From: Lachnospiraceae bacterium
GTDB lineage: Bacteria > Bacillota > Clostridia > Lachnospirales > Lachnospiraceae
Direction: 5' to 3'
DNA: 22,577 nt
NCBI GenBank assembly: GCA_017443685.1
Contig: JAFSYD010000021.1
Span: 1-22,577, forward strand
The notes below the pieces were generated by a model. The model searched no databases. It was given only the letters and a program-made list of their open reading frames with translations, and was not told the origin of the DNA. Below, in pieces: positions 1,249 to 21,763 of the stretch (the first letter of the stretch is position 1; the number at the start of each line of letters is the position of its first letter). The position numbers and the translations under genes are program-made.

Positions 1249-3354
1249 ATGCTTCCCGTACCGAGCTTAGACGATCAGACATTTGAAGAGCTGCTTTCCG
1301 AAGCACGCAACGTGATCACCAGCACGTACGCCGACTGGACGAATTTTAACGAACACGATCCGGGCGTGACGCTGTTGGAGCTGTTTGCGATGCTTGCGGA
1401 GAACCAGCAGTATTATATGGATCAGATCGGCAGGGAGAATCGGATCAAGTATCTGAAGCTTCTTGGACTGCGGCGCCGCCCGAAGGTGTGCGCCCGGACC
1501 TATGTGCATGTTGATACGGAAGATAACCTGCGTCTGATCAGGGGCAGTACGCTTCTGGCGGGAGAACTTTCGTTTGAGATGGAGAGAAACAGATGCGTTC
1601 TGGCACAGGACTTAAAGGGCGCGATGGCGGTCTGCGGCGAGGAGAAGCTCGACGCGGTATGGCTGTCGGGACGGCGCAGGGAGCGGATCGGTTTTCTGCC
1701 TTTCGGACCTAAGCCGAAGGAGGGGAATGCGTGCATTTTTGTGTTTAAGGAAGCGCCGCCCGCGAACGAATATCTGGCCCTGGGCGTGAACATAAGGCAG
1801 GGGAGCGTCGCCCGCAATCCGCTCGCGGATACACCGTTCGTGCCGTTTTACTCGCTGGCTTACGAGTACTATTCGACGGACGGCTGGAAGCCGCTGGATC
1901 AAGTCTCCGACGAGACGAAAGGTTTTCTGTACGACGGATCTTTTCGATTTTCGATCGGGGAAGAGCTGCCCTTCGCGCAGCTTTGCGGAGAGGAAGGATA
2001 TTTCATCCGTGTGCGGATCACGGAGGGCGAGTATGACATTCCGCCGCAGATCACCTATATGAGCATGAACATCGTTGCCGTTAAGCAGCGGGAAACGATC
2101 TGCGAGCATGTGGTGTATGAGCCGAAGGAGGAGGATAAAGCGGACGGGACCATTGCCTGTCCCTTATCGACGGAGCTTTCCGTATACGGCAAGACGGAGG
2201 TGTACGTGCTGCGCGAAAAAGCGTGGTATCGCATCGAGGATTTTGAGAAAAAGGTTGATCCCGCAATGGGGAATGCGGCTCTTATCGTATCGCTTCCGGC
2301 GGGAGAGTCAGCAGATCGCCTGCTTTTGATCCACAGACGGATCTCAATGTGGGATGAAAGCGTGGTGGGAGAGGGAACCGGTTTCCCGGAGCAGGAATTT
2401 TCGCTCGAGGATACCGCGGTCTGCGAGGATCCGATCGCTCTTTTGATCGAGGATGAGCAGCATCCGGGCGCATACCGTCTGTGGGAAAGAGTGGATGACT
2501 TTGCGGCGTCGGGGCCGGAAGACCGGCATTTTGTATTCGACAGCGAAAGCGGTATGATCCGTTTTGGCGACGGTCGGCGCGGACGGGTTCCCGAGGGGGA
2601 GATCCGGCTTGCGTCCTGCGTGCGTACCGAGGGCAGGGGCGGCAATATCCGCAAGCACAGGATCGAACGCTTTGCGCGTGGCGAGCTTTCCAATATCGGG
2701 GTTACGAATATTACGGAAGGCTGGGGCGGATGCGACGAGGAAAGCATGGACGACGCTTTCCTCAGGGCAAGGGAATGCTTAAGTCACCCGGTTACCGCGG
2801 TTTCGGCAGGGGATTACGAGCGGCTCGCGAAACAGACGCCGGGGCTTGTGATCCTGGACGCGAAGGTGATCTCGGCGGCAGACGTTAAGCGCTTCCGCAA
2901 GAACGCCGAAGCCGATGCCGTGCATATCGTCGTGGAACCTTTCGGCTATGAGAACAACCGTTATCTCGAGAAGTTTTACGCGAAGAACATTTTAAACCAC
3001 ATCGAACCCTACCGTATGCTGGGGACCGCGGTACGCATTTATTTCCCGGCGTATGTTGCGGTCGAGGTGTACGCGGAGCTTTCGTGCGCGAGCGTTTTTC
3101 TGGATATGGAAGAGCGTGTCCGCGAGGTGATCGGAGAGTATTTCGATGAACGCCAGAAGAGATTCGGGGAAAGCATCATATACAGCAACTTTTACGGTTA
3201 CCTTTTGCGGCAGGAGTTCATCACACAGGTACGTTCCCTGTCAATCTCGAGCAAAGGCGTAAGCGCGTTTTATAACAGGCTTGGGGACCTTTTGATCCCG
3301 CCGCATGCCAAGGTGCGGCTTACGGGGATCAAGCTGTCCCTGTCCATAGGATAG
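1249..3354 (+). CDS. Baseplate J-type assembly protein, long paralogue (Afp11-like)
   Basis: A 701-residue protein with the typical N-terminus of putative baseplate assembly proteins: NEHDPGVTLLELFAMLAE at about residues 34-51, followed by a helical segment. The middle carries beta-rich insertions. FGDGRRGRVPEG starts at residue 439 and is followed by GRGGNIRKHRI and GGCDEESMDDAFLRARE, matching the C-terminal half of the preceding gene. Two J-type proteins in series, one longer, are usual for Afp/PVC-like systems, where they build the baseplate wedges. The ATG is preceded by GGAGG about 14 bases upstream, inside the end of the previous gene. No frameshift or missing domain is evident. Confidence 0.9.
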   Translation: MLPVPSLDDQTFEELLSEARNVITSTYADWTNFNEHDPGVTLLELFAMLAENQQYYMDQIGRENRIKYLKLLGLRRRPKVCARTYVHVDTEDNLRLIRGSTLLAGELSFEMERNRCVLAQDLKGAMAVCGEEKLDAVWLSGRRRERIGFLPFGPKPKEGNACIFVFKEAPPANEYLALGVNIRQGSVARNPLADTPFVPFYSLAYEYYSTDGWKPLDQVSDETKGFLYDGSFRFSIGEELPFAQLCGEEGYFIRVRITEGEYDIPPQITYMSMNIVAVKQRETICEHVVYEPKEEDKADGTIACPLSTELSVYGKTEVYVLREKAWYRIEDFEKKVDPAMGNAALIVSLPAGESADRLLLIHRRISMWDESVVGEGTGFPEQEFSLEDTAVCEDPIALLIEDEQHPGAYRLWERVDDFAASGPEDRHFVFDSESGMIRFGDGRRGRVPEGEIRLASCVRTEGRGGNIRKHRIERFARGELSNIGVTNITEGWGGCDEESMDDAFLRARECLSHPVTAVSAGDYERLAKQTPGLVILDAKVISAADVKRFRKNAEADAVHIVVEPFGYENNRYLEKFYAKNILNHIEPYRMLGTAVRIYFPAYVAVEVYAELSCASVFLDMEERVREVIGEYFDERQKRFGESIIYSNFYGYLLRQEFITQVRSLSISSKGVSAFYNRLGDLLIPPHAKVRLTGIKLSLSIG

Positions 3355-3358
3355 ACAT

Positions 3359-4474
3359 ATGGCAAAGGGTGAATACTATTTTTTACTGAATAAAAGCGCG
3401 GACTACCGGAGAGGATATCTGGACGGCCTTCGGATCGAGGACGGGTTTCTTGCGCCGCCGGCGGAGGTCGGGAGGAACGGGATCTTCATCTCCCGCCTTT
3501 ACGACAGCCGCACCGAGACGATGCAATGGCACAGGCTTACCATGCGAAAGAGCGGATCCGAAGGCGCGTTTGAGCTTATGATCTTCGCGTCGGATGTCAG
3601 GGAGTTTGTCTTCGAAAATGAGCTGGTGGATATCGAGGATTTTATCAAAAACGAAAAGATCCCCATCGACATCAAAAAGAGGGCGCTTGCTCCCTTCTTA
3701 AAAAAACGGGTCACGGATACGGACGATGTCTGGCTGCATGACGTTAAGGGACGCTACCTGTGGATATCGGTGGTGATGTACGGGCGGCATGAGCAGGCCA
3801 GGATCGAGGAGATCCAGATCGAGTTTCCGGGGCGGAGCATATTAAAGTACCTGCCGGAAATCTACGAAGAGGTGGATGCGGACGGATTCCTCGAACGGTT
3901 CTTAGGCGTCTTCCAGACGATCTACGAGGACCGGAGCACACAGATCGAACAGATGGCTCAGCGGCTTGATCCGGACAGCGCCGAAGAAAAGGAGCTTTAC
4001 GCGTTAGCCGGATGGCTCGGTATCGAATCGCCGCATGTGTGGACATCACAAAGCCTGCGCATCCTGCTGCGTGAATTTTTTGACCTGATCCGACGGCGGG
4101 GGACAAGGCAGGGCTTAAGACGGATCCTGACACTTTTTACAGGGACGGAGCCGCTCATTGTGGAGCCGCAGGAAATGGACGATTTTCCGAAGGACAGTCC
4201 ATACTATGATACCCTCCGTAAGCTGTACGGAGGCGGTGAAAAAAAGATCATGATCCTGCTTTCCGAGGATGTCGCGAAGCCGCGGCTGAAGGAGCAGGTA
4301 TTGCGGAACCTGATCCGGGACATGTGCCCGGCGTATGTTCCTCACGAGCTGGTGCTCTTGAAACCATATATATTCGCCGGCGCATACAGTTACTTAGGCG
4401 TGAACACGACACTTGGCGCATACGGACAGACACGTCTGGACGGAACCTCGGCGGTATCGTTTACCAAGATATGA
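3359..4474 (+). CDS. Phage tail protein, P2 gpI-like (Afp12/Pvc12-like)
   Basis: A 371-residue protein starting 4 bases after the previous stop. The C-terminal half (about residues 160-275) matches the gpI-like tail family: ILKYLPEIYEEVDADGFLERF, then a predicted helix, then LAGWLGIE, then RRRGTRQGLRRILTLFTG and a Glu-Pro segment. These are characteristic of the TIGR02242-type domain. The N-terminal 155 residues (YLDGLRIEDGF ... RYLWISVVMYG) form an extra beta-rich domain common in CIS versions. In the family the protein joins the J-type wedges at the baseplate periphery. Position directly after two J genes supports this. Confidence 0.85.
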   Translation: MAKGEYYFLLNKSADYRRGYLDGLRIEDGFLAPPAEVGRNGIFISRLYDSRTETMQWHRLTMRKSGSEGAFELMIFASDVREFVFENELVDIEDFIKNEKIPIDIKKRALAPFLKKRVTDTDDVWLHDVKGRYLWISVVMYGRHEQARIEEIQIEFPGRSILKYLPEIYEEVDADGFLERFLGVFQTIYEDRSTQIEQMAQRLDPDSAEEKELYALAGWLGIESPHVWTSQSLRILLREFFDLIRRRGTRQGLRRILTLFTGTEPLIVEPQEMDDFPKDSPYYDTLRKLYGGGEKKIMILLSEDVAKPRLKEQVLRNLIRDMCPAYVPHELVLLKPYIFAGAYSYLGVNTTLGAYGQTRLDGTSAVSFTKI

Positions 4475-4487
4475 AGGAAGGACGAAA

Positions 4488-6224
4488 ATGTACAACGCAA
4501 AAATGTATCCATTTGAACGCAATCATTATTTCTACGGCAAGCTGTTGTCGGTAGAGGATTTCGAGCTCGAGCAGAAGTACATGAATGACAAGCGCCGGCT
4601 CATTAACCGTTTCCTGTTCGGGAGCGGCGTCGTTACGGGACTTACCGTGGTCGATGTGGATGAGCAGACCGTCTCGCTGGAAGCGGGATTTGCGCTCGAC
4701 TGCTGGGGACGCGAGATCTTCGTTGACGAGCCGGTTCTTCTAAAGCTCTCCGCGATGGAGGGATTTGACGCCTGCCTTAACGCCAATGCGGATGATGTAT
4801 ATCTGTGCATGGAGTACAACGAGCAGGACGCGGATCGGGTGCACTCCATAGCCGCGCCGCAGTCAGCGGTTGACCGGCGCGTACACGATGACTTTGACCG
4901 TACGAGAGAGGGGGCCAGACTGTATCTGACCGCGAAGGAGCCGGAGGAGAATATCCGCCCGCAGCTTTCCTTCCGCCATCTGCGCGAGACACAGACCGTG
5001 CTTTACGAAGGGGAGAGGGAGCGGATCACGCTGATCGCGCCGCGTTTTGCGGTGAAGGGGGAGGACGCCGTGCTTCGCCTGCACATTGAAAACCGCGGCC
5101 GGAACACGTTAGCATTCGCGTTTGACCTGCAGCTTGGCGGGTTCGTATCAGCGGACGGCAAATCCTCGCTTGGCGTAACCTTTGACGAGGAACTCTACGA
5201 GAAGAGCGACCAGTATGATGTGACCATTCCGATCACGGCGCCGGAGGGCACGGCGACCGAGGGAATGATCCGTGTGGAGAATGATAAAGCGAAGCTGACG
5301 CTTTCGGGCAGTCCGGTCGATACCGCGTTCGGCGCCGCGATCAGTGTCGGATTTGCGAAGGACAGTGTCGCCGGCGCGATCGATGAATATTACCGGAATA
5401 TGTCCGTTGACAATGTTGCGCTTACGGGAATGCAGATCCCGATCTATCTGGCAAGGCTTTCGGTGACGACGACGGAGGACACGCTGATCATCGAATCCTG
5501 TGAAAATGTTCCGTTCGGGCAGTATGTGGGGAATATCCCCCTGATGGAAAGCCTGATGGAGGTTGCCGGGGAAGGCGGCGGCAGTGAAAGAAGCACAAGA
5601 ACGTCGCAGTCACAGGTTGCTGCAGCGGAAGGCATGGACCGGACAAGGATCGCGCAGGGCGTGTATGACCTTATGGTGGAAGGCGGAAGAAAGGGTGAGG
5701 TATCTTACTCCGCGCCCATCGCGCACGGTCTCGGGCTCGGACGCGTGGCGGTCACGCTTGGCATCGAGGAAAAAGACGGCGATGTCATCTACGGATCCAG
5801 TGATATTTTTGATTCGAAGGAGGAACGCGCCGTCGATGTGGACATCGCAGCAAAGGTGAATGAGGATGACGGAAGCTTTATCATCGGGGCGCGTCTTAAG
5901 GAGCAGTCGGTCGGCGGGCACGTCCGGATCCACTGGACGGCGCTGCGGGACGAGAGGACCGTCTACGAAAAGAGTGAAAAGCGGATCTTTATCAAGCCGA
6001 ATCTTTTGGAGCTTGGCGTCAGGGAATCCTACGCGCTGGAGTGCGTATGTGAAAATATGATGGAAAAGAGCGTTACCTGGAGTGTTCACGAAAACGGGGG
6101 ATATATTGACGAGACGGGACTGTATACGGCGCCGAACGATCCGGGCGTATATGAGGTTATGGCGCAGTCGACGGCTTATCCGGATGTCAAAGCCGCAATC
6201 TTTGTAGTAGTCAGAGGTGCTTGA
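4488..6224 (+). CDS. CIS-associated beta-rich spike/fibre-like protein with Ig-like C-terminus
   Basis: ATG 4488 is chosen because GGAAGGA lies just upstream and the conserved N-terminus starts there; an earlier in-frame ATG at 4413 would lie inside the gpI-like gene. The product is 578 residues. Residues 1-85 (RNHYFYGKLLSVEDF, FGSGVVTGL, AGFALDCWGREIFV) resemble an N-terminal domain I recall from other CIS loci, without a firm name. Around residues 185-275 is a CARDB-like beta region (LRLHIENRGRNTLAFAFDL). The last about 65 residues (SVTWSVHENGGYIDETGLYT ... DPGVYEVMAQS) look like a bacterial Ig-like domain. Position after the baseplate genes suggests an outer baseplate, fibre or receptor-binding part. 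This role is inference; a structural adaptor is the alternative. Confidence 0.6.
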   Translation: MYNAKMYPFERNHYFYGKLLSVEDFELEQKYMNDKRRLINRFLFGSGVVTGLTVVDVDEQTVSLEAGFALDCWGREIFVDEPVLLKLSAMEGFDACLNANADDVYLCMEYNEQDADRVHSIAAPQSAVDRRVHDDFDRTREGARLYLTAKEPEENIRPQLSFRHLRETQTVLYEGERERITLIAPRFAVKGEDAVLRLHIENRGRNTLAFAFDLQLGGFVSADGKSSLGVTFDEELYEKSDQYDVTIPITAPEGTATEGMIRVENDKAKLTLSGSPVDTAFGAAISVGFAKDSVAGAIDEYYRNMSVDNVALTGMQIPIYLARLSVTTTEDTLIIESCENVPFGQYVGNIPLMESLMEVAGEGGGSERSTRTSQSQVAAAEGMDRTRIAQGVYDLMVEGGRKGEVSYSAPIAHGLGLGRVAVTLGIEEKDGDVIYGSSDIFDSKEERAVDVDIAAKVNEDDGSFIIGARLKEQSVGGHVRIHWTALRDERTVYEKSEKRIFIKPNLLELGVRESYALECVCENMMEKSVTWSVHENGGYIDETGLYTAPNDPGVYEVMAQSTAYPDVKAAIFVVVRGA

Positions 6225-6229
6225 TTCTC

Positions 6230-7012
6230 ATGGTGATCAAAACATTAGAAGCAACCTATTCGGTGCAGCGTCAGCTGCCGTATGCGCAGGACAACCGGGT
6301 GTTTGTCTGCGAAAAGGAGGGGGTAAATGATCTGTTTCTCCTTGTCGAGATTGCGGACAAGGAGACGATACGGACGGCAGTGGACTTTTTGAGTTCGGCA
6401 AAAAGGATGCCGGAGTTTTCGGATTTTATTGATTGTTTTTTCGCGGAAGAGAATTTTTACGCGGTATTTGCTTTTTACAACAGCAAGTCCCTTGAGGAGA
6501 TCTTAAAAGAGGATCATCCGACTCTTCCCGAACGTCTCGCGATGGTACGCGAGATCCTTGAGAAATGGATGCTGCAGAAGCTGCCGCCGTATTTTTCTTA
6601 TGATACGGCACGGGTTGATTATATCCGGTTTACGGCAGGGACGAAGAGTGTACTGGCCTTCGCGCTTTCGAATCTTGCGCAGCGCGATGAGATCACTTTT
6701 GAAAAAGTGCAGCAGCGTTTTTCAAAGCTCTGGGAGGCCGCATTTGCGGAGGAGTTTGCCAAAAAGAGTGTGCCCGAGCTTGAGCGCTTCAAGGAAACTC
6801 TTGATAAAGGGGTATATGAAGATGTTCCGGCTCTGTTTGTCGCATATGATAAGCTGGAGGAGGAGATTTTAAAGCAGCCGGAGGGGGAATGGGAAGCGTC
6901 GAAAACATGGCCGTTTCGGCTATGGGAAAAGATAAAAGCGGGCTTTCCGGCGGTGAAGCGTATCATAGAGTTCATTTTGCTGTTCGCGGCGTTTATGTTC
7001 CAGATCAAATAG
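6230..7012 (+). CDS. Tail-anchored membrane protein of unknown function (possible kinase-like fold)
   Basis: A 260-residue protein. The frame opens with TTG at 6221, but ATG 6230 is preferred because AGAGGTG (6212-6218) is correctly placed for it. No family is recognised. Most of the protein is soluble and charged. Residues 243-258 (KRIIEFILLFAAFMFQI) form a hydrophobic C-terminal segment with only two residues after it, so the protein is probably tail-anchored with its body in the cytoplasm. Strands near residues 22-40 and 75-84 followed by the helix PERLAMVREILEKWM recall a protein-kinase-like layout, but no Gly-rich loop, HRD or DFG motif is seen. The kinase comparison is weak inference. 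It lies between the spike-like gene and the MORN membrane protein gene. Confidence 0.6.
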   Translation: MVIKTLEATYSVQRQLPYAQDNRVFVCEKEGVNDLFLLVEIADKETIRTAVDFLSSAKRMPEFSDFIDCFFAEENFYAVFAFYNSKSLEEILKEDHPTLPERLAMVREILEKWMLQKLPPYFSYDTARVDYIRFTAGTKSVLAFALSNLAQRDEITFEKVQQRFSKLWEAAFAEEFAKKSVPELERFKETLDKGVYEDVPALFVAYDKLEEEILKQPEGEWEASKTWPFRLWEKIKAGFPAVKRIIEFILLFAAFMFQIK

Positions 7013-7024
7013 GTCCGCCCCAGT

Positions 7025-7159
7025 ATGTCCAGCGGTGGACAGCAGAGGCAGTTCGACCGGATCGGTACGTTAGAGATCCATGAGGATAAGCAGCCGGAAG
7101 AAGCAGAGGAAGAAGGGTTTCAACCATGGCGTCGATTACGCAATTCGCAAAGCGATTAA
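7025..7159 (+). CDS. Possible small acidic protein (44 aa)
   Basis: An ATG-initiated ORF of 44 codons lies between the tail-anchored protein gene and the MORN gene and overlaps the start of the latter by 34 bases in another frame. The peptide is hydrophilic, with an acidic middle (EDKQPEEAEEEG) and no membrane segment or known motif. Codon choice in the first 34 codons looks coding-like. The upstream ribosome site is poor (AGGTCC). It might be a real small protein, or a translated leader whose ribosomes restart at the MORN gene ATG at 7126. It could also be chance. Confidence 0.3.
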   Translation: MSSGGQQRQFDRIGTLEIHEDKQPEEAEEEGFQPWRRLRNSQSD

Positions 7160-8787
7160 CACGATTTTTTATTACCCCGGTACAGATAGCCGCGCGCAAG
7201 ATCATGATCTTGTTCTCACCGACGAGCATCATGAGCAAGGTGTCGACGGATATCAAGACCGAAGTCAAAAACGCGAAAGGTGTACCGAATACCATCGAGG
7301 AATACTTCCTGATCGGACATCGGTATGTTGCGAAAAAGATCGTATATATCGGTACATTGGTGGCAATACTGGTACTGGCATTTATCATCCTGGTGGGAAT
7401 GCCCTGGGCGATCTCCAAATTTTTTACTCGCACCTTTGTTATCAACTCCGAGAAAATGGTGGGCTATAACGGCAAAGTACGCCTGGTGGATACGGCGGAT
7501 CAAAAGAAAGTGCTCTTTGAAGGACGGATGGAAGAAGGCCGGATCAACGGGAAGGGAACGCTTTGGGATTACGGCGGCGCGAAGCTCTATCAGGGAGAGT
7601 TTCTGATGGAGATGTACGAAGGCAGCGGGGAGACCTTTTACCCGGACGGCAGTACCTGTTACAAGGGCGATTTTGTCAGCAACAATTACGAAGGCACAGG
7701 AACGCTCTACTACGAAAACGGTCAGATGAAGTACAAAGGCACGTTCATCGGCGGACTGTATGACGGCATGGGAACGCTCTACTACAAGAATGGCAAGACC
7801 GAATATGTCGGGGCGTTTTCCCAGGGACTGTTTAACGGTACGGGCAAGCTTTACGATAAAAGCGGCAGGCTTTTGTATGAGGGTGCTTTCTCGGGCGGGA
7901 AAAAGAACGGACAGGGAACCCTGTTCGGCGCGGACGGCGAAGCTCTGTTTACCGGGGATTTTGCCGATGATGTGTCCGTCGAGGGTATGACGACGATATA
8001 CGATGATAACGGAAATGTTGTCTACAACGGTCAGGTAAAAGACGGAAAATATGACGGCGAAGGGGTTCTGTACGGCGAGAACGGCGAGATCGTCTATGAG
8101 GGCTCTTTTGCAAAGGGCAAATACGAAGGCGACGGCAAGCTGTATAACGAAGAAGGTGCTCTTGTATACGAGGGAGCATTCGCGGACGGCGCGTACGAAG
8201 GCGACGGCAAGCTGTATGACGAAGAAGGCAAAGTGGTTTATAACGGCGCTTTCGCTGCCGGATTGAAGGAAGGCGCGGGCAAAGTCTACGAGGATGAAGT
8301 GCTGATCTATGACGGCACGTTCTCGGAAGATATGTACGACGGCAATGGCATGCTGTATGATAAGGAAACGACCGCGATGGTATACAACGGCGCGTTTTCC
8401 CGTGGTCTTTATGAGGGAGACGGCGTGCTGTATGACCCCACGACCGAGATCAAGATCTACGAAGGCGCTTTCCACAACGGCCTTTATGAAGGCGATGGCT
8501 GTCTGTATGATGAGAGCGGGCTGCTTCTGTATGAGGGCGCGTTCTCCCAGGGCAAATACAATGGCAAGGGAACGCTTTATGATGCGAAGACCGGGGCGGT
8601 AGTAGCCGATGGCGTCTTTTCCGGAGGAGAGGCCACAGAGGCGGCAATAAAAGCGGCGCAGGATGCGGCAGCAGCCGGCGACGCGGGGGCGGCGGACGGC
8701 GCGGAACAACCGGCAGACAGCTCTGCGGCAGACGCCGCGGGAACAGCGGCAGGGAGCACTTCACCGAACGTGGTCATCACGCAGTAA
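7126..8787 (+). CDS. Membrane-anchored MORN-repeat protein
   Basis: A 553-residue protein with an AGAAGGG ribosome site 8 bases before the ATG. Residues 1-70 are basic and amphipathic. Residues 72-92 (IVYIGTLVAILVLAFIILVG) are a transmembrane helix. Residues 130-500 are about 16 repeats of 23-25 residues with consensus Y-x-G-x-F-x-x-G-x-Y-x-G-x-G-x-L-Y, the MORN / YwqK-type repeat. The last about 50 residues are an Ala/Gly/Asp low-complexity tail ending PNVVITQ. Basic residues before the helix suggest an N-in topology, which would put the repeats outside the membrane. MORN repeats mediate protein or lipid contacts in other proteins. Such a gene between baseplate and cap genes is unusual; anchoring or sensing for the particle is inference. 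Confidence 0.85.
   Translation: MASITQFAKRLTRFFITPVQIAARKIMILFSPTSIMSKVSTDIKTEVKNAKGVPNTIEEYFLIGHRYVAKKIVYIGTLVAILVLAFIILVGMPWAISKFFTRTFVINSEKMVGYNGKVRLVDTADQKKVLFEGRMEEGRINGKGTLWDYGGAKLYQGEFLMEMYEGSGETFYPDGSTCYKGDFVSNNYEGTGTLYYENGQMKYKGTFIGGLYDGMGTLYYKNGKTEYVGAFSQGLFNGTGKLYDKSGRLLYEGAFSGGKKNGQGTLFGADGEALFTGDFADDVSVEGMTTIYDDNGNVVYNGQVKDGKYDGEGVLYGENGEIVYEGSFAKGKYEGDGKLYNEEGALVYEGAFADGAYEGDGKLYDEEGKVVYNGAFAAGLKEGAGKVYEDEVLIYDGTFSEDMYDGNGMLYDKETTAMVYNGAFSRGLYEGDGVLYDPTTEIKIYEGAFHNGLYEGDGCLYDESGLLLYEGAFSQGKYNGKGTLYDAKTGAVVADGVFSGGEATEAAIKAAQDAAAAGDAGAADGAEQPADSSAADAAGTAAGSTSPNVVITQ
7513..8631 (+). repeat. Tandem MORN-repeat coding region (about 16 units of 69-75 bp)
   Basis: Repeats are in frame and encode 23-25 residues each. 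They are diverged at DNA level, although the units at about 8091-8240 share long runs (for example TACGAAGGCGACGGCAAGCT occurs twice, near 8124 and 8196). Unit 7 (FTGDFADDVSVEGMTTIYDD) and unit 11 (ending KVYEDEVLI) deviate most. The repeats explain the long open antisense frame across the gene. Confidence 0.85.
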
Positions 8788-8825
8788 AAGAATAAGATCG
8801 ATCAAAAGGGAGCGAAAAAAGGACT

Positions 8826-9719
8826 ATGGGATTTTCTTCGATCAGTGATATCGGAAAGACGATGGTAAGAATATTAAATGACGCGCTCGTGCCGGATGTG
8901 ATCCTGCACAACGGCGCTATCGGGCTTTGCGCGCCGAACGACCACGGGGATTTCAATCTCGGCATCTATCTCTATGATGTCGCGCCGAGCGAGGAGGTTT
9001 TCGCGCATGGCATGGTCAACACCGGTCTTAAGGAACAGACCTATCCATCGTCGTTCCTGACGCTCCGTTACATGATCACGGCGTATTCCTCCGGCGACTT
9101 AAAGTACCGCGCGGAGGAGGATCAGCGCATTTTAGGGCGTGTCGTGCAGGCGCTTGCGGATCATTACGTGATCGGGCAGACCTCCGCGCTGCACGGGGAT
9201 CCGATGAAAACGCGCATTGAACAGGAGCGGATCGGTCCCTATGAGAAGATCCGCCTGTGGACCTTCCCGAATGAGCCATACCGCGTGACATTATTTTACA
9301 AGGTCTCGCCGGTGGAGATCACTTCCGCGCGTACGAAGACCATGACGCGTGTGACCGACCTTTCCATGCTTTTGGGAAACGATGTCGACAATGTTCTGGC
9401 AGAGCCGATCCGCGAGATCGGATACAAACGTACGCTGGTGGTTCTGTGCAAGGACTCCACGGACGGTCGCGTGATCACAGGCAACAACGTCCGCGCGTAT
9501 ATCGAGGGAGAGCGTCCGGCGGTCATCAAGGAGGACGGGTATCGGGTATTCTTAAATGTCAGAAGCGATCACGCGACGCTTAAGGTGGAAAGCGGGATCT
9601 ACGAGCCGTATGAGATGGAACTTGATTTTGGAGAGCGGGACGCCGAAGAGGTGCTTAACATCACCTTAGACCGGTCAAAGACGCACCCGAAATATGCGCA
9701 TGAGGAGGACGAGGCATGA
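8826..9719 (+). CDS. Pvc16/DUF4255-type tail terminator (cap) protein
   Basis: A 297-residue protein matching the DUF4255 / Pvc16 N-terminal family. Residues 4-30 give the helix SSISDIGKTMVRILND; NLGIYLYDV (44-52) and YPSSFLTLRYMITAYS (73-88) are the typical core, followed by the helix RILGRVVQALADH. The C-terminal about 80 residues are beta-rich (VIKEDGYRVFLNVRS). In Afp/PVC-like systems this family ends the tube and sheath at the distal end. The ATG has an AAAAAAGG stretch 3 bases upstream. Its stop overlaps the next ATG by 4 bases. Confidence 0.85.
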   Translation: MGFSSISDIGKTMVRILNDALVPDVILHNGAIGLCAPNDHGDFNLGIYLYDVAPSEEVFAHGMVNTGLKEQTYPSSFLTLRYMITAYSSGDLKYRAEEDQRILGRVVQALADHYVIGQTSALHGDPMKTRIEQERIGPYEKIRLWTFPNEPYRVTLFYKVSPVEITSARTKTMTRVTDLSMLLGNDVDNVLAEPIREIGYKRTLVVLCKDSTDGRVITGNNVRAYIEGERPAVIKEDGYRVFLNVRSDHATLKVESGIYEPYEMELDFGERDAEEVLNITLDRSKTHPKYAHEEDEA

Positions 9720-10102
9720 GTATGTGTGTGTGCATGGGGGCGATGATGCAGTGCAGCTTCGGGATGACGCCGTCCTCGCTTATCGTACCGCCGACCGGTC
9801 GTGTCAACAACACGGCGCCGGTGGCGACGATCATGGATAACAAGCCGATCGTGAATATCCCGCCGTTTGGCATGTGCAAGTCCATGGCCAATCCGACAGT
9901 CGCGGCAGCTACGGCGGCGGCGTCGGGCGTACTGACACCGATGCCGTGCGTTCCGGTTACGGCGGCACCATGGATGCCGGGCAGCCAGACGGTTGTGATA
10001 GGTTCGTTTCCGGCGCTTACCGACAATTCCAAATGTATGTGCAACTGGGGCGGACAGATCTCGATCAATTCCCCCGGATCGAATTGCGTGCAGGTGGGAT
10101 AA
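9716..10102 (+). CDS. DUF4280 PAAR-like spike tip protein
   Basis: A 128-residue protein that starts in an ATGA overlap with the cap gene. It matches the PAAR-like DUF4280 family: a Cys-containing N-terminus (MSMCVCMGAMMQCSFG), then LIVPPTGRV, NIPPFGMCKSMANP, a short Ala-rich helix, PMPCVPVTAAPWMPGS, SFPALTD and CMCNWGGQISI. Eight Cys are present (4, 6, 13, 54, 78, 107, 109, 124). PAAR-type proteins form the sharp cone at the spike apex, often around a bound metal, and may carry or dock effectors. No extension domain is fused here. Being next to the cap gene rather than a VgrG-like gene is a little unusual. Confidence 0.85.
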   Translation: MSMCVCMGAMMQCSFGMTPSSLIVPPTGRVNNTAPVATIMDNKPIVNIPPFGMCKSMANPTVAAATAAASGVLTPMPCVPVTAAPWMPGSQTVVIGSFPALTDNSKCMCNWGGQISINSPGSNCVQVG

Positions 10103-10121
10103 CGGGGAGGATTTATAACAT

Positions 10122-10979
10122 ATGGGAAAAAGCATTCGGGAACAATTTATTCCAAAAAAGAAGCTGGACTTTTTGCAGATCGACGGTACTTTCGAAGAAG
10201 CAAAGCAGAATCTCAAAACGCCCCGCTGTATCGATGCGGGTGTGATGCGGATGGGCATGGCTGACATCGATTTCGGGTTCGATGATAATGAGGCTCCTGC
10301 GATGTTTGAGCGGATCGCCGCACAGGTGGAGCACGCGATGCCTTCTTTTGCCGAGTGGGGCGGCGAGGTGGACCACGATCTGGGAACCGGCGTGCAGCTG
10401 CTCTTCATGGAGAATAAGACCGGCGCGCTGGGCGCCGCGATCCAGGCGCGGGAGCGCCTGTTAAAGCGGGCGGAAATGATAAGGGACATGACCTTCGGCC
10501 TCTCCTATGGCAAAGTAGTTCTCGGAGTCTTAGGGGGCGCGGAGTCTTACAGCGTGATGTCTTTTTCGCAGGTATCGTTCATTTCCGCGTTTTTGCAGCA
10601 GGTGACGGGCAAATACTCCGCGAGCATACTTGTGTCGGAGGAGCTGATCCGGCAGGATCCGTCTCTTACGTCGAAATATTCCTGCCGGCTTTTAGGAAAA
10701 TTTTATTTTGGCAAAATAAAAAAGACACTGAAGGTCTATGACTTTTATGATGGAGATGAGATTGCCGTGCGTACCGCAAAGCGCAAGACGGATCTGCTTT
10801 TTGACAAGGGTGTAAGCCTTTTTCTGGCAGAGGATTTTGCACGGGCGCGGAGCTATTTTATCGAGGTGATCAAGGCCAACCGCGGGGATAAGGCGGCGCG
10901 TATCTATCTGTCGCTTTGTGATACTTTCAGGGAGAATCCGCCGGAATCTCCCGAAGAGCTTTGTATTGAGAGGGTATGA
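10122..10979 (+). CDS. Degenerate class III nucleotide-cyclase homologue with TPR-like tail
   Basis: A 285-residue protein with a GGGGAGGA ribosome site before the ATG. Residues 40-210 follow the order of a class III cyclase catalytic domain: MRMGMADIDFGF (first strand, Asp48), GGEVDHDLGTGVQLLF, ALGAAIQARERL, FGLSYGKVVLGVLGG, a dimer-helix region, SILVSEELI and LLGKFYFGKIKKTLKVYDF. The last about 55 residues (FDKGVSLFLAEDFARARSYF ... AARIYLSLC) form the TPR-like tail found after many bacterial cyclases. The usual GDG is GTG (88-90), so the second metal Asp is missing. The Asn/Arg pair expected in the dimer helix is replaced by SFISAFLQQ (152-160). It is therefore probably inactive and may act as a binding or sensory partner. 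No membrane segment is present. Confidence 0.65.
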   Translation: MGKSIREQFIPKKKLDFLQIDGTFEEAKQNLKTPRCIDAGVMRMGMADIDFGFDDNEAPAMFERIAAQVEHAMPSFAEWGGEVDHDLGTGVQLLFMENKTGALGAAIQARERLLKRAEMIRDMTFGLSYGKVVLGVLGGAESYSVMSFSQVSFISAFLQQVTGKYSASILVSEELIRQDPSLTSKYSCRLLGKFYFGKIKKTLKVYDFYDGDEIAVRTAKRKTDLLFDKGVSLFLAEDFARARSYFIEVIKANRGDKAARIYLSLCDTFRENPPESPEELCIERV

Positions 10980-10983
10980 ACGG

Positions 10984-12240
10984 ATGAAGATTAAAACGAT
11001 CCGAAAGCAGATCATGGTGGCGATGATCGGTGTCATTCTGATCTATTTTGCGATATCCATGGGGTATTCCATGCTGGAATACGCGACCTTGAATCAGCTG
11101 ATGGACGGCGAAATGGAGCAGGCTTTCGATTTGATGGAGCAGGTCTTAGAGGGGGCCAATCCGGATGATCCGGCGGTTCAGATGCTGATGTCCGACGAGT
11201 ACTATGACGGGATCCTCAAACATGTCGATGAGAGCTTAAACAAACTCGAGGTCGGATATATTGCCGCTTTAGTGCTGGTTATTGTGATCTCATTTTTGTA
11301 CTCGCGAAGAATGTCCAACCGTATCGTGAATCCGATCGTGCGGCTCGAAGAGCAGATGAAGGCTGTCGGGGAAGGACATTTAGATCAGATGGTACGCATC
11401 GAAAACGCGCCGGAGGAGATCGAGGGACTTGCGAATTGCTTTAATTCGATGACGACCTCCCTGCAGGAGTACATCAGGCAATTAACACAGACGACCTCCG
11501 ACAAGAACCGTTTGTCGATGGAGCTTACCCTGATGCGGCAGATTCAGGCGAACATGCTGCCGTCCCGGTATCCCACGTTGAATAACGTGATGATGCATGC
11601 GGATGTGTGGCGTTTTTCGGAGATCGGCGTTGCGTATTACGACTTTTTCCCGGTGGATGAGTCCCGCCTGGCGCTGATCGTCGGGGATGTGACGGACCAG
11701 GGCGTCATGGCGACACTGTTTGCGGTGATGTCGCAGAATTTTATCCGCGGTTTTGCCAAGATGGGTTATGCGCCAAGCCGTATCCTCTCTGAGACCAACA
11801 ACCTTCTCTCGGAAAAGAACGAGTTCGGATTGAATGTCGCGGTAACGGTGGTGGTGATCGACCATATGACGGGTGAGATCGCCTACGCGATGGCGGGAGG
11901 CGAGCCGCCGATCCTGCGGCAGGCGGGAAGCGCCGCAAAGCCGGTATCGGATCAGATGACGATCCCGCTCGGGAACATGGAAAATGTCGGATATCATACG
12001 TATAAGACGCGTCTGGCGCAGGGCGATACCTTAGCGGTCTATTCCCATGGTGTGGTGGAAGCGAAGAATGCGGCGAATGAAAGCTTCGGGGCGGGACGCC
12101 TTGCGGAGGCGATAGAGGCACGGCTGGGATACGAACTGTCCGAGGCGTCCGAAGAGATCCGCTCGCGCATTCACACATTTACCGGCGGCGCCGCACAGGC
12201 CGAAGACGGGATCATGCTTTTGCTTAGGTACCTGGGGTAG
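10984..12240 (+). CDS. HAMP-containing SpoIIE/PP2C-type phosphatase homologue, probably degenerate
   Basis: ATG 10984 is chosen because AGAGGG lies 9 bases upstream; an earlier in-frame start at 10918 would lie inside the cyclase-like gene. The 418-residue product has TM1 at 10-30, a short external loop, TM2 at 91-107, a HAMP-like region at 108-160 and a linker with the RsbU-type motif LMRQIQANMLPSRYP. A SpoIIE/PP2C-type domain follows (about 205-418). Family landmarks are present but altered: the usual GGD is GVA (215-217), GDVxGxG is GDVTDQG (234-240), GHxP is GGEPP, YTDG is YSHG (353-356), and DDxT is DGIM (408-411). Loss of several metal ligands suggests a pseudophosphatase. It probably relays an external signal to a partner; this is inference. 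Confidence 0.75.
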   Translation: MKIKTIRKQIMVAMIGVILIYFAISMGYSMLEYATLNQLMDGEMEQAFDLMEQVLEGANPDDPAVQMLMSDEYYDGILKHVDESLNKLEVGYIAALVLVIVISFLYSRRMSNRIVNPIVRLEEQMKAVGEGHLDQMVRIENAPEEIEGLANCFNSMTTSLQEYIRQLTQTTSDKNRLSMELTLMRQIQANMLPSRYPTLNNVMMHADVWRFSEIGVAYYDFFPVDESRLALIVGDVTDQGVMATLFAVMSQNFIRGFAKMGYAPSRILSETNNLLSEKNEFGLNVAVTVVVIDHMTGEIAYAMAGGEPPILRQAGSAAKPVSDQMTIPLGNMENVGYHTYKTRLAQGDTLAVYSHGVVEAKNAANESFGAGRLAEAIEARLGYELSEASEEIRSRIHTFTGGAAQAEDGIMLLLRYLG

Positions 12241-12244
12241 GAAA

Positions 12245-13864
12245 ATGAGTTCGGATAAGACTGCATTGTTTTTAAACCGCGGAGAAGAGTCTGCGGATAC
12301 CGGGGAATTGCTTTCCCTGCTTATGTTTGAGCCGAAGGCGGACGAGAGAGTGTTCCCGGAAAGCATCCGGGAGGATAAACGATCCGCGTGCGCGTTTTAT
12401 ATGTCGGAAATGTCCAGGCAGCAGTATCGCAGACCGGCGAAGCTGTACGGCGGGCATTTGCTGTGTATCTACGGCCCCGAGGGGATCGGGAAGCGGGAGC
12501 TTGTATATCAGACGGCAAAGGAGATGGGGGCTCTGCTTCTGTGGATCGACGCGGACAAGCTTTTTTTGGCCAACGCGAAAGAGATCACGGAGATCCTTGG
12601 GGCACTTGCGCAGCGGATCAGCCGGACGGGGGCGCTTCCGGTATTCGTAAGTACCCGCGTCGATAAAGAGAAGGAAAAGGATACCGCGGAGAACAGGATC
12701 CGGGAGAGTTTCCTGTATTCGTGGCTTGCGAGGGAGAACGGCGCGGCTGTCCTGCTTTCGGCAGAAAAGCCGGATGAGGTGTTTGGCTACCGGCTGCATA
12801 CCCTGTTCATCGAGCTTCCGATGCTGAGTGTCGGTGAGCGGGTGCTGCTCTGGGAGGAAATGTGCGGGGACATTCCTTTTGCAGCGGATGTGAACCCCTC
12901 ACAGTGCGCGAACCAGTACATTTTTACCCCGAAAAGCCTTCGTGAGATCTTAAGCGACGCCGTAAAGCGGGCGCAAAGGAACGCCGGAGACGCGGAATAT
13001 GCCGTTACGGCCGCGGATATCCGTGCGGCGGTAAGCGAACAGAGCGCGAATCAGCTGGGTGCGTTAGCGAAGGAGCTGCATTCTAACTACACCTGGGAGG
13101 ACCTTGTGATCGACGATGAGGAACAAAGGCAGCTTCAGATCATCTGCGACCAGGTGCGTTACCGGAGCGTGGTGGGCGATCAGTGGGGATTTTACGATAA
13201 GTCGGCTTACGGACGCGGGATTACCGCACTGTTTTACGGCACGCCGGGCACCGGCAAAACGATGGCGGCGCATGTGCTCGCCAATGAGCTGGGCCTTAGC
13301 CTGTACCGTGTGGACTTATCGCAGATGGTGTCAAAATATATCGGAGAGACGCAGAAAAATATCTCCGAGCTCTTTGATAAGGCGAAGAATACCAACGCGA
13401 TGCTGTTCTTTGATGAGGCAGACGCTCTTTTCTCCAAGCGGACGGAGGTAAAGGATGTCCACGATAAGCACGCGAACGCCGATACCGCGCATCTTTTGCA
13501 GCGCTTAGAGGATTACGAGGGGCTTGTGATCCTTGCGACGAACTACCAGCAGAATATCGACGACGCGTTCAAACGGCGGATCCGCTTCATGGTGCGGTTT
13601 GCCTTCCCCGATGAGGATGTTCGTCTTACCTTATGGAAGACGATCCTGCCGAAAGGCGTGCCGATTGACGAAGAGATCCGGTTTGTTTTTTTCGCGAAGC
13701 GGTTCGAGCTGCCGGGCAGCGGGATCAAGGAAGTGTTAAAGAACGCCGCTTATCTGGCGGCAGCACAGGACAGAGGTTTGAAGAACTGCGATATAGAGAT
13801 CGCGTTAAAATACTATTTTGCAAAACTCGGAAAGGTACTTGGAAAGGAGGATTTTCAAACATGA
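12245..13864 (+). CDS. AAA+ ATPase (Afp15-like) with an N-terminal degenerate P-loop domain
   Basis: A 539-residue protein, starting 4 bases after the previous stop. The C-terminal AAA+ module has Walker A GTPGTGKT (332-339), Walker B LFFDEAD (387-393), sensor-1 Asn433 in LATNY and paired Arg444/445 as arginine-finger candidates. Residues 60-260 contain a second NTPase-like segment with GPEGIGKR (77-84), a weak P-loop with no clear matching Walker B. AAA+ ATPases of this type accompany CIS clusters and are thought to help particle assembly or disassembly. A close paralogue lies at 16441. It overlaps the next gene by 4 bases. Confidence 0.85.
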   Translation: MSSDKTALFLNRGEESADTGELLSLLMFEPKADERVFPESIREDKRSACAFYMSEMSRQQYRRPAKLYGGHLLCIYGPEGIGKRELVYQTAKEMGALLLWIDADKLFLANAKEITEILGALAQRISRTGALPVFVSTRVDKEKEKDTAENRIRESFLYSWLARENGAAVLLSAEKPDEVFGYRLHTLFIELPMLSVGERVLLWEEMCGDIPFAADVNPSQCANQYIFTPKSLREILSDAVKRAQRNAGDAEYAVTAADIRAAVSEQSANQLGALAKELHSNYTWEDLVIDDEEQRQLQIICDQVRYRSVVGDQWGFYDKSAYGRGITALFYGTPGTGKTMAAHVLANELGLSLYRVDLSQMVSKYIGETQKNISELFDKAKNTNAMLFFDEADALFSKRTEVKDVHDKHANADTAHLLQRLEDYEGLVILATNYQQNIDDAFKRRIRFMVRFAFPDEDVRLTLWKTILPKGVPIDEEIRFVFFAKRFELPGSGIKEVLKNAAYLAAAQDRGLKNCDIEIALKYYFAKLGKVLGKEDFQT

Positions 13865-16440: not shown

Positions 16441-17862
16441 TTGGAGGCATATCGCGACTATCTGGAAAAATTGTATGCGCTGGTGACGAAGCGGCTTCGG
16501 CTCGGCGCCATGCGGGCGGATGAGGATACGGCGGAAGCGACCGGGAAGGAGGCGCAGGGAAATCCGGCGGAGACTAAGGCGGCGCGCGTGGAGGCGCTCG
16601 CCGGTGAGATCCGCGCTAAGGCGCATCGTCTCCTTGCGATGGAGGAGGAATTGCTCGAGGGCGGGTCATTCGCTCCGCTTCCGTATCTGTACGCGGCGTG
16701 CGACGCGGATGATTTCGAGCGGCATACGGCGGCAATGCTGCTGTTTGCGGAGATCTCCTCCGCCTGTGCGGACGGCGTAGGCATCCTGCAGGAGGATGCG
16801 GCAAAAACCCGATTTCCTGCTTCAGACGAGGTCACGCCGCGTCTTCTTATGATGACCTATGAGGGCGAATATCACGACGATGACGCGTATCTGTCCCTGC
16901 GGGAGGACTCCGTGTTCGGCAGCGTTTTTCTGGAGAAGACGGGGGAACGCGGGATGAACCGCGCCTTAAGTCTGGATGCGAAGATCCTGCGGATGATCCT
17001 GACCGGAGCATCGGAGAATACGGATACAGAAGGACTGCTTACGGCAAAGGGCTACGCGTCGGCCGGCAGTCCGATCCCGCATACACAGCGGATGACGGGA
17101 GGAGCGCGTCTTTCCGGTGTGATCCTGCCGGAGCATTCCCGTGAGCAGGTAGCGGCCTGCATCGAGAGGGTGCGGCTGGCGAAGAAGGTCTATGACGCGT
17201 GGGACTTTGCCCGGGTAGCAGGTTATGGCAGGGGCGTTTCGATGCTCTTTTGGGGACCGCCGGGAACGGGAAAGACGATGCTTGCCCAGGCCGTGGCAAA
17301 TGAGCTTCAAATGGAGCTTTACCGCGTCAATCTGCCGGCGGTCGTCAGCAAATACGTCGGCGAGACGGAAAAGCATTTAAACGAGATCTTTGAGCACGCG
17401 AAGGGGCGCAGGATCGTCCTCTTTTTTGACGAGGCGGACGTCCTGTTCGGGAAGCGGACGGAGATCAAGGAGGCAAACGACAAGTACGCCAATATGGAAG
17501 CGGCGTATCTTTTACAAAAAATGGAGGAATATGAAGGGGTTACGATCCTTGCGACGAATTACCGGAGGAATTTTGACGAGGCGTTTTCAAGGCGTCTGAC
17601 CGCCATCATAACGATTCCGTTCCCGGACGAAGCCGCGCGGCGGGCCATCTGGGAGCTGGTGCTCCCGAAGGAGCTTCGGGGGGATGATGTCGATCTGAAC
17701 CGCATGGCGGCAAAATACGAGCTGACCGGAAGCGCCATCAAAAACAGCGTCCTTTCCGCGGCTTTTGCCGCGGCAGCCGACGGGGAGGAGCGGATCAGCG
17801 ATGAGCGTCTGCGCGCCGGCATCCGGGGCGAGTTTGAAAAGCAGGGGAAGACGATGCAGTAA
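16441..17862 (+). CDS. AAA+ ATPase, second Afp15-like paralogue
   Basis: A 473-residue protein that appears to start at TTG 16441, with GAGGAAGGGG just upstream; the first internal ATG is at codon 24. Residues 1-215 are helical and not recognised. The AAA+ core has Walker A GPPGTGKT (272-279), Walker B LFFDEAD (327-333), sensor-1 Asn373 in LATNY and Arg384/385. The core closely matches that of the ATPase at 12245 (shared YGRG, ANEL, LYRV, VSKY-GET, KRTE), but the N-terminal region is different and has no P-loop. Most Afp/PVC-like loci I know carry one such ATPase, so a second may have a separate client or form a mixed ring. Confidence 0.85.
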   Translation: MEAYRDYLEKLYALVTKRLRLGAMRADEDTAEATGKEAQGNPAETKAARVEALAGEIRAKAHRLLAMEEELLEGGSFAPLPYLYAACDADDFERHTAAMLLFAEISSACADGVGILQEDAAKTRFPASDEVTPRLLMMTYEGEYHDDDAYLSLREDSVFGSVFLEKTGERGMNRALSLDAKILRMILTGASENTDTEGLLTAKGYASAGSPIPHTQRMTGGARLSGVILPEHSREQVAACIERVRLAKKVYDAWDFARVAGYGRGVSMLFWGPPGTGKTMLAQAVANELQMELYRVNLPAVVSKYVGETEKHLNEIFEHAKGRRIVLFFDEADVLFGKRTEIKEANDKYANMEAAYLLQKMEEYEGVTILATNYRRNFDEAFSRRLTAIITIPFPDEAARRAIWELVLPKELRGDDVDLNRMAAKYELTGSAIKNSVLSAAFAAAADGEERISDERLRAGIRGEFEKQGKTMQ

Positions 17863-17908
17863 AGATTTTATTGATGAAAGAGATTCGATAACGGAGCGGT
17901 GCAGGCTT

Positions 17909-21588: not shown

Positions 21589-21627
21589 GGTCCCCGTCAC
21601 GGATTTTTATGACGGGGGCTTTTTTTT
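21589..21627 (+). terminator. Strong Rho-independent terminator after the tube gene
   Basis: GTCCCCGTCA (21590-21599) pairs with TGACGGGGGC (21610-21619) around a 10-base loop, followed by eight T (21620-21627). One T-G wobble is included. It should separate the sheath/tube unit from the following genes. Confidence 0.85.
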
Positions 21628-21628
21628 G

Positions 21629-21657
21629 TTGAAAAAATGCGCAACCTATTATAATAT
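21629..21657 (+). promoter_or_regulatory. Sigma-A-like promoter for the second tube gene
   Basis: TTGAAA (21629-21634) is followed after 17 bases by TAATAT (21652-21657); an overlapping TATAAT is at 21650. It directly follows the terminator. Transcription would start near 21664, leaving a roughly 100-base leader with the palindrome ATCCGCGGAT (21680-21689). Confidence 0.6.
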
Positions 21658-21763
21658 GAATATCAGGATCATAAGAGGTTCATCCGCGGATCGTTTTATT
21701 TCAAAAACGAAAGACGGAAGCCGGAACGAAAACAGTTTTGAAAATCAGGCAGGGGTTATAATT

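What the first reader, a model, noticed from the sequence alone, without database searches (positions are those of the whole stretch)
6230..12240. Putative signalling module embedded in a CIS operon
Between baseplate genes and ATPase genes lie a tail-anchored protein, a MORN membrane protein, a cyclase-like protein and a HAMP/SpoIIE-like membrane protein, with the cap and tip genes among them. At least two of these keep the fold landmarks but lose catalytic residues. A set of pseudoenzymes within a CIS operon suggests assembly or firing controlled by binding rather than catalysis.
Basis: partly seen in the sequence, partly recalled or inferred. Interest (0 to 1): 0.75.

Follow-up and report, generated by a model that had tools for sequence, protein, structure and literature searches.

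The report
Dead-enzyme membrane module of injection machine
In gut bacteria related to Lachnospiraceae, the genes for a phage-tail-like injection machine carry a conserved set of proteins built from inactive relatives of a kinase, a cyclase and a phosphatase, which probably dock the machine to the cell's own membrane and tell it when to fire.

Summary
The "tail-anchored protein" is a pseudokinase (kinase fold, catalytic motifs lost family-wide). The "cyclase-like" protein is a pseudocyclase with a conserved TPR-like tail. The HAMP/SpoIIE protein is a pseudophosphatase. The MORN protein has one membrane helix, with its repeats predicted outside.

In 80 loci found through the adjacent Cis13-like gene, the pseudokinase is present wherever the DNA reaches (78 of 78), MORN in 73 of 73, the pseudocyclase in 55 of 57. 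The pseudophosphatase is optional (23 of 56): absent where the pseudocyclase carries its own multi-helix region (0 of 26), usual where it does not (23 of 28). The two look like interchangeable sensor inputs.

Best reading: a docking and trigger complex for a contractile injection system (CIS), working by binding rather than catalysis. It resembles in layout, but shows no sequence relation to, the pseudokinase hub of type VII secretion. T6SS TssM was not found in 12 of 12 host genomes. Whether firing is outward (T6SS-like) or suicidal (Streptomyces-like) is open; there is no experimental evidence. One full-text search for CIS with pseudokinase found no paper. New variant of a known kind.

The parts
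3..1241 (+). baseplate J-like protein, first copy (cut by window start)
   Evidence: Pfam Baseplate_J 2.3e-9
1249..3354 (+). baseplate J-like protein, second copy
   Evidence: Pfam Baseplate_J 4e-8
3359..4474 (+). Tail_P2_I-like baseplate protein
   Evidence: Pfam Tail_P2_I 2.1e-5
4485..6224 (+). Cis13-like protein, directly upstream of the pseudokinase
   Evidence: NCBIfam NF053767 CIS13_fam, 81.9 bits over residues 10-167, below the curated cutoff of 370
6230..7012 (+). membrane-anchored pseudokinase: kinase fold plus C-terminal membrane helix
7013..7087 (+). conserved outer tail with the IGTLEI motif, in the same frame but beyond an in-frame TAG at 7010-7012; relatives encode it without a stop
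7126..8787 (+). MORN-repeat protein: conserved N-terminus predicted cytoplasmic, one membrane helix, repeats predicted outside
   Evidence: Pfam MORN 5.3e-25; topology of relatives; N-terminal conservation
8826..9719 (+). cap protein, Pvc16-type
   Evidence: Pfam Pvc16_N 1.3e-18
9716..10102 (+). PAAR-like spike tip (DUF4280)
   Evidence: Pfam DUF4280 1.1e-35; PAAR_motif only 0.06
10122..10979 (+). pseudocyclase: class III cyclase fold without catalytic residues, plus conserved YDxYDGD linker and TPR-like tail; the window copy lacks the N-terminal membrane/HAMP region that longer relatives carry
10987..12240 (+). HAMP plus SpoIIE-type pseudophosphatase with an N-terminal hydrophobic region (read from the sequence)
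   Evidence: Pfam SpoIIE 1e-33 and HAMP 4.3e-8; metal Asp lost
12245..13864 (+). AAA+ ATPase
   Evidence: Pfam AAA 3.4e-34
16441..17862 (+). second AAA+ ATPase
   Evidence: Pfam AAA 7.4e-31
19328..21115 (+). contractile sheath
   Evidence: Pfam Phage_sheath_1 4.3e-20
21137..21568 (+). tube protein
   Evidence: Pfam Phage_T4_gp19 5.8e-43
21626..22186 (+). second tube-like protein
   Evidence: Pfam Phage_T4_gp19 6.8e-6, 26.4 bits against a cutoff of 28.2

Best explanation
This is a conserved membrane docking-and-trigger module of a Clostridia contractile injection system. Shown by computation: the pseudokinase, the MORN protein and a pseudocyclase are stable parts of the locus, and the enzyme-like ones are catalytically degraded. 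Inferred: the pseudokinase sits on the inner face of the cytoplasmic membrane, held by its C-terminal helix, and acts as an interaction hub that receives the baseplate, most likely through the neighbouring Cis13-like protein. The MORN protein crosses the same membrane and extends a repeat stalk of variable length outward; the short outer tail of the pseudokinase (IGTLEI) may bind it. A sensor with a HAMP relay passes an outside signal to the pseudocyclase. In some loci that part is fused to the pseudocyclase; in others, including the window, it is carried by the HAMP-pseudophosphatase. The pseudocyclase would pass the signal on by changing shape or dimer state, with its conserved TPR-like tail as the output that contacts the docked machine. 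No second messenger and no phosphate transfer are needed.
For: Co-occurrence: pseudokinase 78 of 78, MORN 73 of 73, pseudocyclase 55 of 57 of the loci with enough downstream DNA; the other 2 of the 80 loci end at the Cis13 gene. The pseudokinase starts within 191 bases of the Cis13 gene's end in 78 of 78. Sheath-based sample: 10 of 12 sheath-positive genomes of 100 have the pseudokinase. Order sample: of 18 non-self genomes with a profile match, 15 have it in a Cis13-bearing locus, 14 of these directly beside Cis13, and 3 are ordinary kinases. Folds. Catalytic loss: VAIK Lys kept in 4 of 66, HRD Asp 0 of 66, DFG Asp 4 of 66; 55 of 65 cyclase-like proteins keep none of four residues; 0 of 25 phosphatase-like proteins keep all three scored metal Asp. 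Topology: one C-terminal helix in 76 of 76 full-length pseudokinases, IG motif in the tail of 73 of 76, MORN single helix in 69 of 72 with more Lys/Arg on the N-terminal side in 66 of 71. Alternation: pseudophosphatase in 23 of 28 loci with a 0-1 helix pseudocyclase, 0 of 26 with a multi-helix one, Fisher 9e-11. Selection: median dN/dS 0.095 pseudokinase, 0.105 pseudocyclase, 0.131 MORN, 0.16 pseudophosphatase, against 0.07-0.10 for Cis13, Tail_P2_I and Pvc16. Conservation in the pseudocyclase is highest in linker and tail. TssM family PF06761: 0 of 12 genomes. Precedents: CisA is needed for firing in Streptomyces (PMC12237407, passages); a putative anchor goes with membrane-docked haloarchaeal systems (PMC11566945, passages).
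Against: No interaction, localisation or firing data exist; the link to the baseplate is by gene order only. The 80 loci were chosen through the Cis13-like gene, so the co-occurrence holds for this CIS subtype. The three samples overlap: judged by equal contig lengths, 5 of the 10 genomes of the sheath sample and 4 of the 15 of the order sample are also among the 80, and some of them are in the profile used. In the sheath sample 2 of 12 lacked the pseudokinase (G006, 67% complete with an 11-kb contig; G046, a 99% complete genome whose sheath gene stands without other recognised CIS genes), and G085 has pseudokinase and MORN but no pseudocyclase was recognised. In G142 the pseudokinase lies 3.1 kb from Cis13 on the other strand. 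Sequences are related by descent, so the Fisher value overstates independence. Two loci lack a detectable pseudocyclase (L082, L094), and five with a 0-1 helix pseudocyclase lack the pseudophosphatase (L064, L067, L068, L069, and L107, whose gene is cut by the locus end). Kinase C-lobe columns rest on an alignment of very distant sequences; the profile match to kinases covers the N-lobe only. Cache matches in the fused forms are below Pfam cutoffs. The window copy of the pseudokinase is interrupted, so this particular system may be decaying, unless that is an assembly error.
Confidence: 0.55

Rival explanations
1. A stress-suicide system like the cytoplasmic CIS of Streptomyces: the module senses envelope damage and lets free cytoplasmic particles fire into the cell's own membrane, killing the producer.
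For: [quoted passage not shown] Here too membrane genes follow baseplate genes, and HAMP with weak Cache matches fits stress sensing.
Against: No sequence comparison with CisA was made. CisA is described as an unstructured N-terminus, one helix and a substrate-binding-like domain, unlike the pseudokinase or MORN protein. The long MORN parts predicted outside suggest engagement with the wall or exterior.
Confidence: 0.25
2. An ordinary extracellular CIS released by lysis; the membrane genes control expression or timing (partner-switching or second-messenger signalling) and are not part of the machine.
For: The operon has a BTAD-type regulator, and HAMP-SpoIIE proteins usually belong to regulatory switches (recalled).
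Against: The genes are interleaved with cap, tip and baseplate genes in most full-length loci, catalytic residues are lost across the family, and pseudokinase and MORN are present in every locus that reaches far enough.
Confidence: 0.13
3. Some of the enzymes are active with unusual residues or as heterodimers, so signalling is catalytic.
For: A few members keep single catalytic residues (9 of 65 keep one of four cyclase residues, 1 of 65 keeps two; 2 of 25 phosphatase-like proteins keep two of three scored metal Asp), and three of the 56 long loci carry two pseudocyclase genes.
Against: 55 of 65 cyclase-like proteins, the window's among them, keep neither the metal pair nor the transition-state pair, so they could supply neither half of a heterodimeric site. 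The HRD Asp is absent in 66 of 66 kinase-like proteins.
Confidence: 0.05

Closest known systems
Streptomyces coelicolor CIS with the membrane protein CisA (PMC12237407, passages read)
   Same: A CIS with membrane protein genes next to baseplate genes; the membrane protein is needed for firing there.
   Different: CisA is described as an unstructured N-terminus, one helix and a substrate-binding-like domain. Here there is a pseudokinase, a MORN protein and a pseudocyclase with HAMP partners. No direct comparison was run.
Haloarchaeal T6SS-like CIS with putative anchor Hbor_38620 (PMC11566945, passages read)
   Same: A conserved membrane protein tied to a subset of CIS clusters (29 of 41), proposed to dock the baseplate at the cytoplasmic membrane.
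   Different: That anchor has six predicted helices and a cytoplasmic domain of about 150 residues; the passages read describe no module of dead enzymes.
YukC/EssB of type VIIb secretion and TraF of Gram-positive type IV secretion (PMC13037476, abstract and outline; PMC12599244, passages)
   Same: Cytoplasmic pseudokinase domain plus membrane anchoring, used as an interaction hub of a secretion machine.
   Different: No detectable sequence relation to YukC (hhalign probability 0.2; no PF10140 match in the window's genome); TraF was not compared. Only a short outer tail follows the helix here.
Class III nucleotidyl cyclases such as OaPAC
   Different: Catalytic residues lost; TPR-like tail added; many members carry membrane helices and HAMP in front.
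HAMP-PP2C regulators (SpoIIE/RsbU/SiaA type)
   Same: HAMP plus SpoIIE domain; best NCBIfam model is SiaA, far below its cutoff.
   Different: At least one scored metal-binding Asp lost in each of the 25 proteins compared; located inside a CIS operon.

Membership tests
Contractile injection system (CIS) | sheath, tube, two baseplate J-like proteins, cap, spike tip and AAA+ genes in one cluster | tested here: met
   Pfam matches on one contig
Type VI secretion system (TssJLM type) | membrane complex protein TssM (PF06761) | tested here: not met
   0 of 12 module-bearing genomes match, the window's included; the control search rings in E. coli. TssJ and TssL were looked for only as Pfam matches among the 20 window proteins, none
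Membrane-docked (T6SS mode) CIS | particles attached to the cytoplasmic membrane and firing outward | not testable with these tools
   needs tomography or killing assays
Hanks-type Ser/Thr kinase, fold | kinase fold | tested here: met
   pLDDT 94.1 model; the 50 rows shown by Foldseek and the 50 by VIA-align are all entries of kinases, kinase homologues or complexes that hold one; N-lobe profile match to PknB-like kinases, probability 83.6, P 8e-6
Hanks-type Ser/Thr kinase, active | VAIK Lys, HRD Asp, DFG Asp | tested here: not met
   4 of 66, 0 of 66, 4 of 66; window E, T, A
YukC/EssB | PF10140 sequence family | tested here: not met
   no match in the window's genome; hhalign probability 0.2 against four YukC proteins
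YukC/EssB | cytoplasmic pseudokinase domain followed by one membrane helix | tested here: met
Class III nucleotidyl cyclase, fold | cyclase fold | tested here: met
Class III nucleotidyl cyclase, active | two metal Asp and transition-state Asn and Arg | tested here: not met
   0 of 4 kept in 55 of 65, window included (window G, T, F, F)
SpoIIE-type PP2C phosphatase, fold | SpoIIE domain | tested here: met
   Pfam 1e-33
SpoIIE-type PP2C phosphatase, active | metal-binding Asp (three columns taken from 3es2) | tested here: not met
   0 of 25 keep all three; window A, D, H
CIS13 family (NF053767) | score above curated cutoff of 370 bits | tested here: not met
   81.9 bits, N-terminal part only; called Cis13-like here
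CisA of Streptomyces | sequence or fold relation to CisA | not tested
   no CisA sequence was fetched

The most novel reading that the evidence does not exclude
The module is the trans-envelope complex of a previously undescribed T6SS-like injection machine of gut and rumen Clostridia, built almost wholly from dead signalling enzymes. The pseudokinase would be a further, separately recruited membrane pseudokinase hub of a Gram-positive secretion machine, after YukC/EssB and TraF. An outside sensor (HAMP with Cache-like, in some loci perhaps propeller-like, parts) would fire the docked machine through a pseudocyclase conformational switch.
Probability: 0.4. Interest if true: 0.88.

Novelty: new variant of a known kind. 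Interest (0 to 1): 0.76.

Why it matters
How contractile injection systems are docked and told to fire in bacteria without the T6SS membrane complex is an open question; two recent partial answers are CisA and the haloarchaeal anchor. Here a defined, testable protein set recurs in Clostridia (456 stretches in species genomes encode a relative of the marker gene, of which the best 80 were examined), some in named strains, with candidate receptors whose outside parts vary. It would extend the theme of membrane pseudokinases as secretion hubs to another kind of machine, and it gives an unusual case of a signalling chain in which each enzyme-like part is dead.

Tried and rejected
Pfam and NCBIfam on the window pseudokinase gave nothing useful (FAD_binding_1 at 0.0094, below cutoff; no NCBIfam match); 4 of 66 members touch Pkinase at E up to 1, best 0.0017. 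The profile search of the PDB was only suggestive (best E 0.0065); the fold was settled by the model. I considered that it might be a YukC/EssB relative: rejected at sequence level. YukC/EssB did not appear among the 50 rows listed by VIA-align, which excludes nothing. Weak pseudokinase-profile matches in G117, G136 and G148 were read and are ordinary kinases with the catalytic Lys, Asp and DFG in place. A second weak match in G022 (7e-6) was not examined. The sheath match in G046 has no other recognised CIS genes in the stretches fetched, about 17-20 kb on either side; its two weak CYC matches look by eye like chemoreceptor-type HAMP proteins and are not counted. The CYC profile, widened in its second round, also picked up the HAMP region of PP2C proteins (label CYC+PP2C); those were excluded from CYC counts. 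Mirror-tree correlations are positive for all gene pairs tested and single out no partner, so I draw nothing from them. dN/dS pairs overlap in members and dS is above 1 in many of the pairs printed. In four loci the PP2C gene lies on the opposite strand (L070, L072, L073, L075). Literature: the listings returned by searches showed no report of this module. Searches returned no paper; only 12 of 51 and 8 of 778 papers were listed. Most subscription papers and preprints are not in that library.
Full report
WHAT IS THERE. The window is one contig (G000:C146) of an incomplete assembly, 1.68 Mb and 71% complete. Its genus mate G104 has a pseudokinase on a contig of 84,378 bases, the same length as the contig of Lachnospiraceae bacterium RGIG4930 from roe deer rumen (L062), one of the two closest named relatives by the Cis13-like protein (53%), so I take the host to be a Lachnospiraceae relative (inference). 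On the + strand lie two baseplate J-like genes, Tail_P2_I, a Cis13-like gene, the four genes of the finding with cap (Pvc16_N) and PAAR-like tip (DUF4280) genes among them, two AAA+ ATPases, a BTAD-type regulator, sheath and two tube genes.

THE SPOIIE-LIKE PROTEIN IS A PSEUDOPHOSPHATASE. Pfam SpoIIE 1e-33 and HAMP 4.3e-8. Of 25 proteins (the window plus 24), none keeps all three scored metal Asp and two keep two; one of the 25 is cut by its contig end. The window reads A, D, H. The fourth Asp common in this class (recalled) was not scored.

THE MORN PROTEIN. Of 72 MORN proteins of 300 residues or more, 69 have exactly one predicted membrane helix; among 71 with the helix near the N-terminus, 66 have more Lys/Arg before than after it, so the repeats are predicted outside. 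The N-terminus is conserved (Y60 in all 73 rows, G64 in 99%, K70 in 95%). Total length runs from 320 to 1108 residues, some cut by contig ends, and a strict pattern finds 1 to 19 repeats, 10 in the window. A variable stalk is an inference.

CO-OCCURRENCE. A scan of species genomes with the Cis13-like alignment found 456 relatives; the best 80 were kept. Where the locus extends far enough, the pseudokinase is present in 78 of 78, MORN in 73 of 73, the pseudocyclase in 55 of 57, the pseudophosphatase in 23 of 56. The 2 of 80 loci without a pseudokinase hit (L101, L106) end at the Cis13 gene. In 78 of 78 the pseudokinase starts within 191 bases of the end of the Cis13 gene. This set was chosen through Cis13, so two other samples matter. 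First, of 100 genomes of the family, 12 have a sheath relative at E 1e-20 and 10 of these 12 have the pseudokinase. The exceptions are G006 (67% complete, short contig) and G046 (a sheath gene without other recognised CIS genes). In 8 of the 10 both lie on one contig. In G085 no pseudocyclase was recognised. With the window's single sequence, 6 of the same 100 genomes had a pseudokinase match, all six sheath-positive. Second, in 246 genomes of the order, 19 matched the pseudokinase profile; besides the window's own, 15 of 18 lie in a locus with a Cis13-like gene (G022, the rest), 14 of them directly beside it and one (G142) 3.1 kb away on the other strand; the other three are ordinary kinases. 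The samples overlap: by equal contig lengths, 5 of the 10 and 4 of the 15 are also among the 80. Gene order differs between two sub-types: pseudokinase-MORN-cap-tip-pseudocyclase, and pseudokinase-pseudocyclase-MORN. Pseudokinase, MORN and, with the exceptions named, pseudocyclase stay together through that change. The T6SS membrane protein TssM was found in 0 of 12 module-bearing genomes.

SENSOR ALTERNATION. Of 56 loci with at least 9.9 kb downstream, 28 have a pseudocyclase with no or one membrane helix, and 23 of these 28 have the HAMP-pseudophosphatase; 26 have a multi-helix pseudocyclase, and 0 of 26 have it (Fisher 9e-11, ignoring relatedness); 2 have no pseudocyclase found. Four fused forms examined by Pfam (L020, L023, L027, L110) all match HAMP above cutoff; Cache matches are weak. 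So the input is either fused to the pseudocyclase or supplied by the pseudophosphatase (inference). The five exceptions are L064, L067, L068, L069 and L107 (cut by the locus end). In L064 and L068 membrane proteins of MFS type, that of L068 with NHL and weak Cache matches, lie downstream.

SELECTION. Median dN/dS on close pairs: pseudokinase 0.095 (63 pairs), pseudocyclase 0.105 (45), MORN 0.131 (69), pseudophosphatase 0.16 (19), Cis13 0.083 (75), Tail_P2_I 0.102 (70), Pvc16 0.073 (48). The dead-enzyme genes are maintained. Pairs overlap in members and dS is often above 1 in those printed.

HOW IT LIKELY WORKS. Shown by computation: folds, catalytic loss, predicted topology, genomic linkage, purifying selection. 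Inferred: the pseudokinase receives the baseplate at the membrane (Cis13 is its neighbour; in haloarchaeal systems Cis12 and Cis13 at the baseplate periphery were suggested as possible membrane contacts, PMC11566945); MORN extends outward; HAMP sensors switch the pseudocyclase, whose tail is the output. The direction of firing is open: T6SS-like outward or Streptomyces-like self-directed (PMC12237407; PMC12998442, passages).

NOVELTY. The parts are known folds and the machine is a known kind; the module did not appear in the listings of my searches. A survey of eCIS loci reports GerE and BTAD regulators and occasional histidine kinases, and the word cyclase does not occur in its main text (PMC8213781, passages). 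A review of bacterial pseudokinase families does not contain the word contractile (PMC12599244, passages). I file it as a new variant of a known kind.

Noticed in passing
window 14391-15212: Glycine-rich protein with repeated GGILGG-type blocks, a charged stretch and a run of arginines at the C-terminus; no Pfam match over cutoff. Possibly a cargo or membrane-active product of the locus.
   Followed up: no
window 17873-19210: Low-complexity protein with SGGSSGGWFGG repeats between the second AAA+ gene and the sheath; no Pfam match. May be another cargo candidate.
   Followed up: no
L028 (G000:C15) and L029 (G000:C5): The same genome carries fragments of what looks like a second, divergent CIS: cap genes, PAAR-like tip and sheath on C15; MORN and a pseudocyclase-like protein with membrane region on C5. 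That they belong together is a guess.
   Followed up: partly
L064:18084-21682, by eye also L065, L067 and L025:5049-8621: Some loci have an ABC substrate-binding-like protein followed by a large MFS-type membrane protein downstream of the pseudocyclase (families checked in L064 only). CisA of Streptomyces is described with a substrate-binding-like domain, so the parallel may be worth a look.
   Followed up: partly
L110:16737-19448 and relatives of about 900 aa: The longest pseudocyclase fusions have about 300 residues between the first two membrane helices, by eye propeller-like, before the HAMP region; a candidate receptor for an outside target. Not identified by Pfam.
   Followed up: partly
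L133, L134, L137: Three loci carry two different multi-helix pseudocyclase genes in tandem.
   Followed up: no
L058:1915-3642 (G046): A sheath-like gene stands without other recognised CIS genes, next to repeat-rich and sensor-type proteins.
   Followed up: partly
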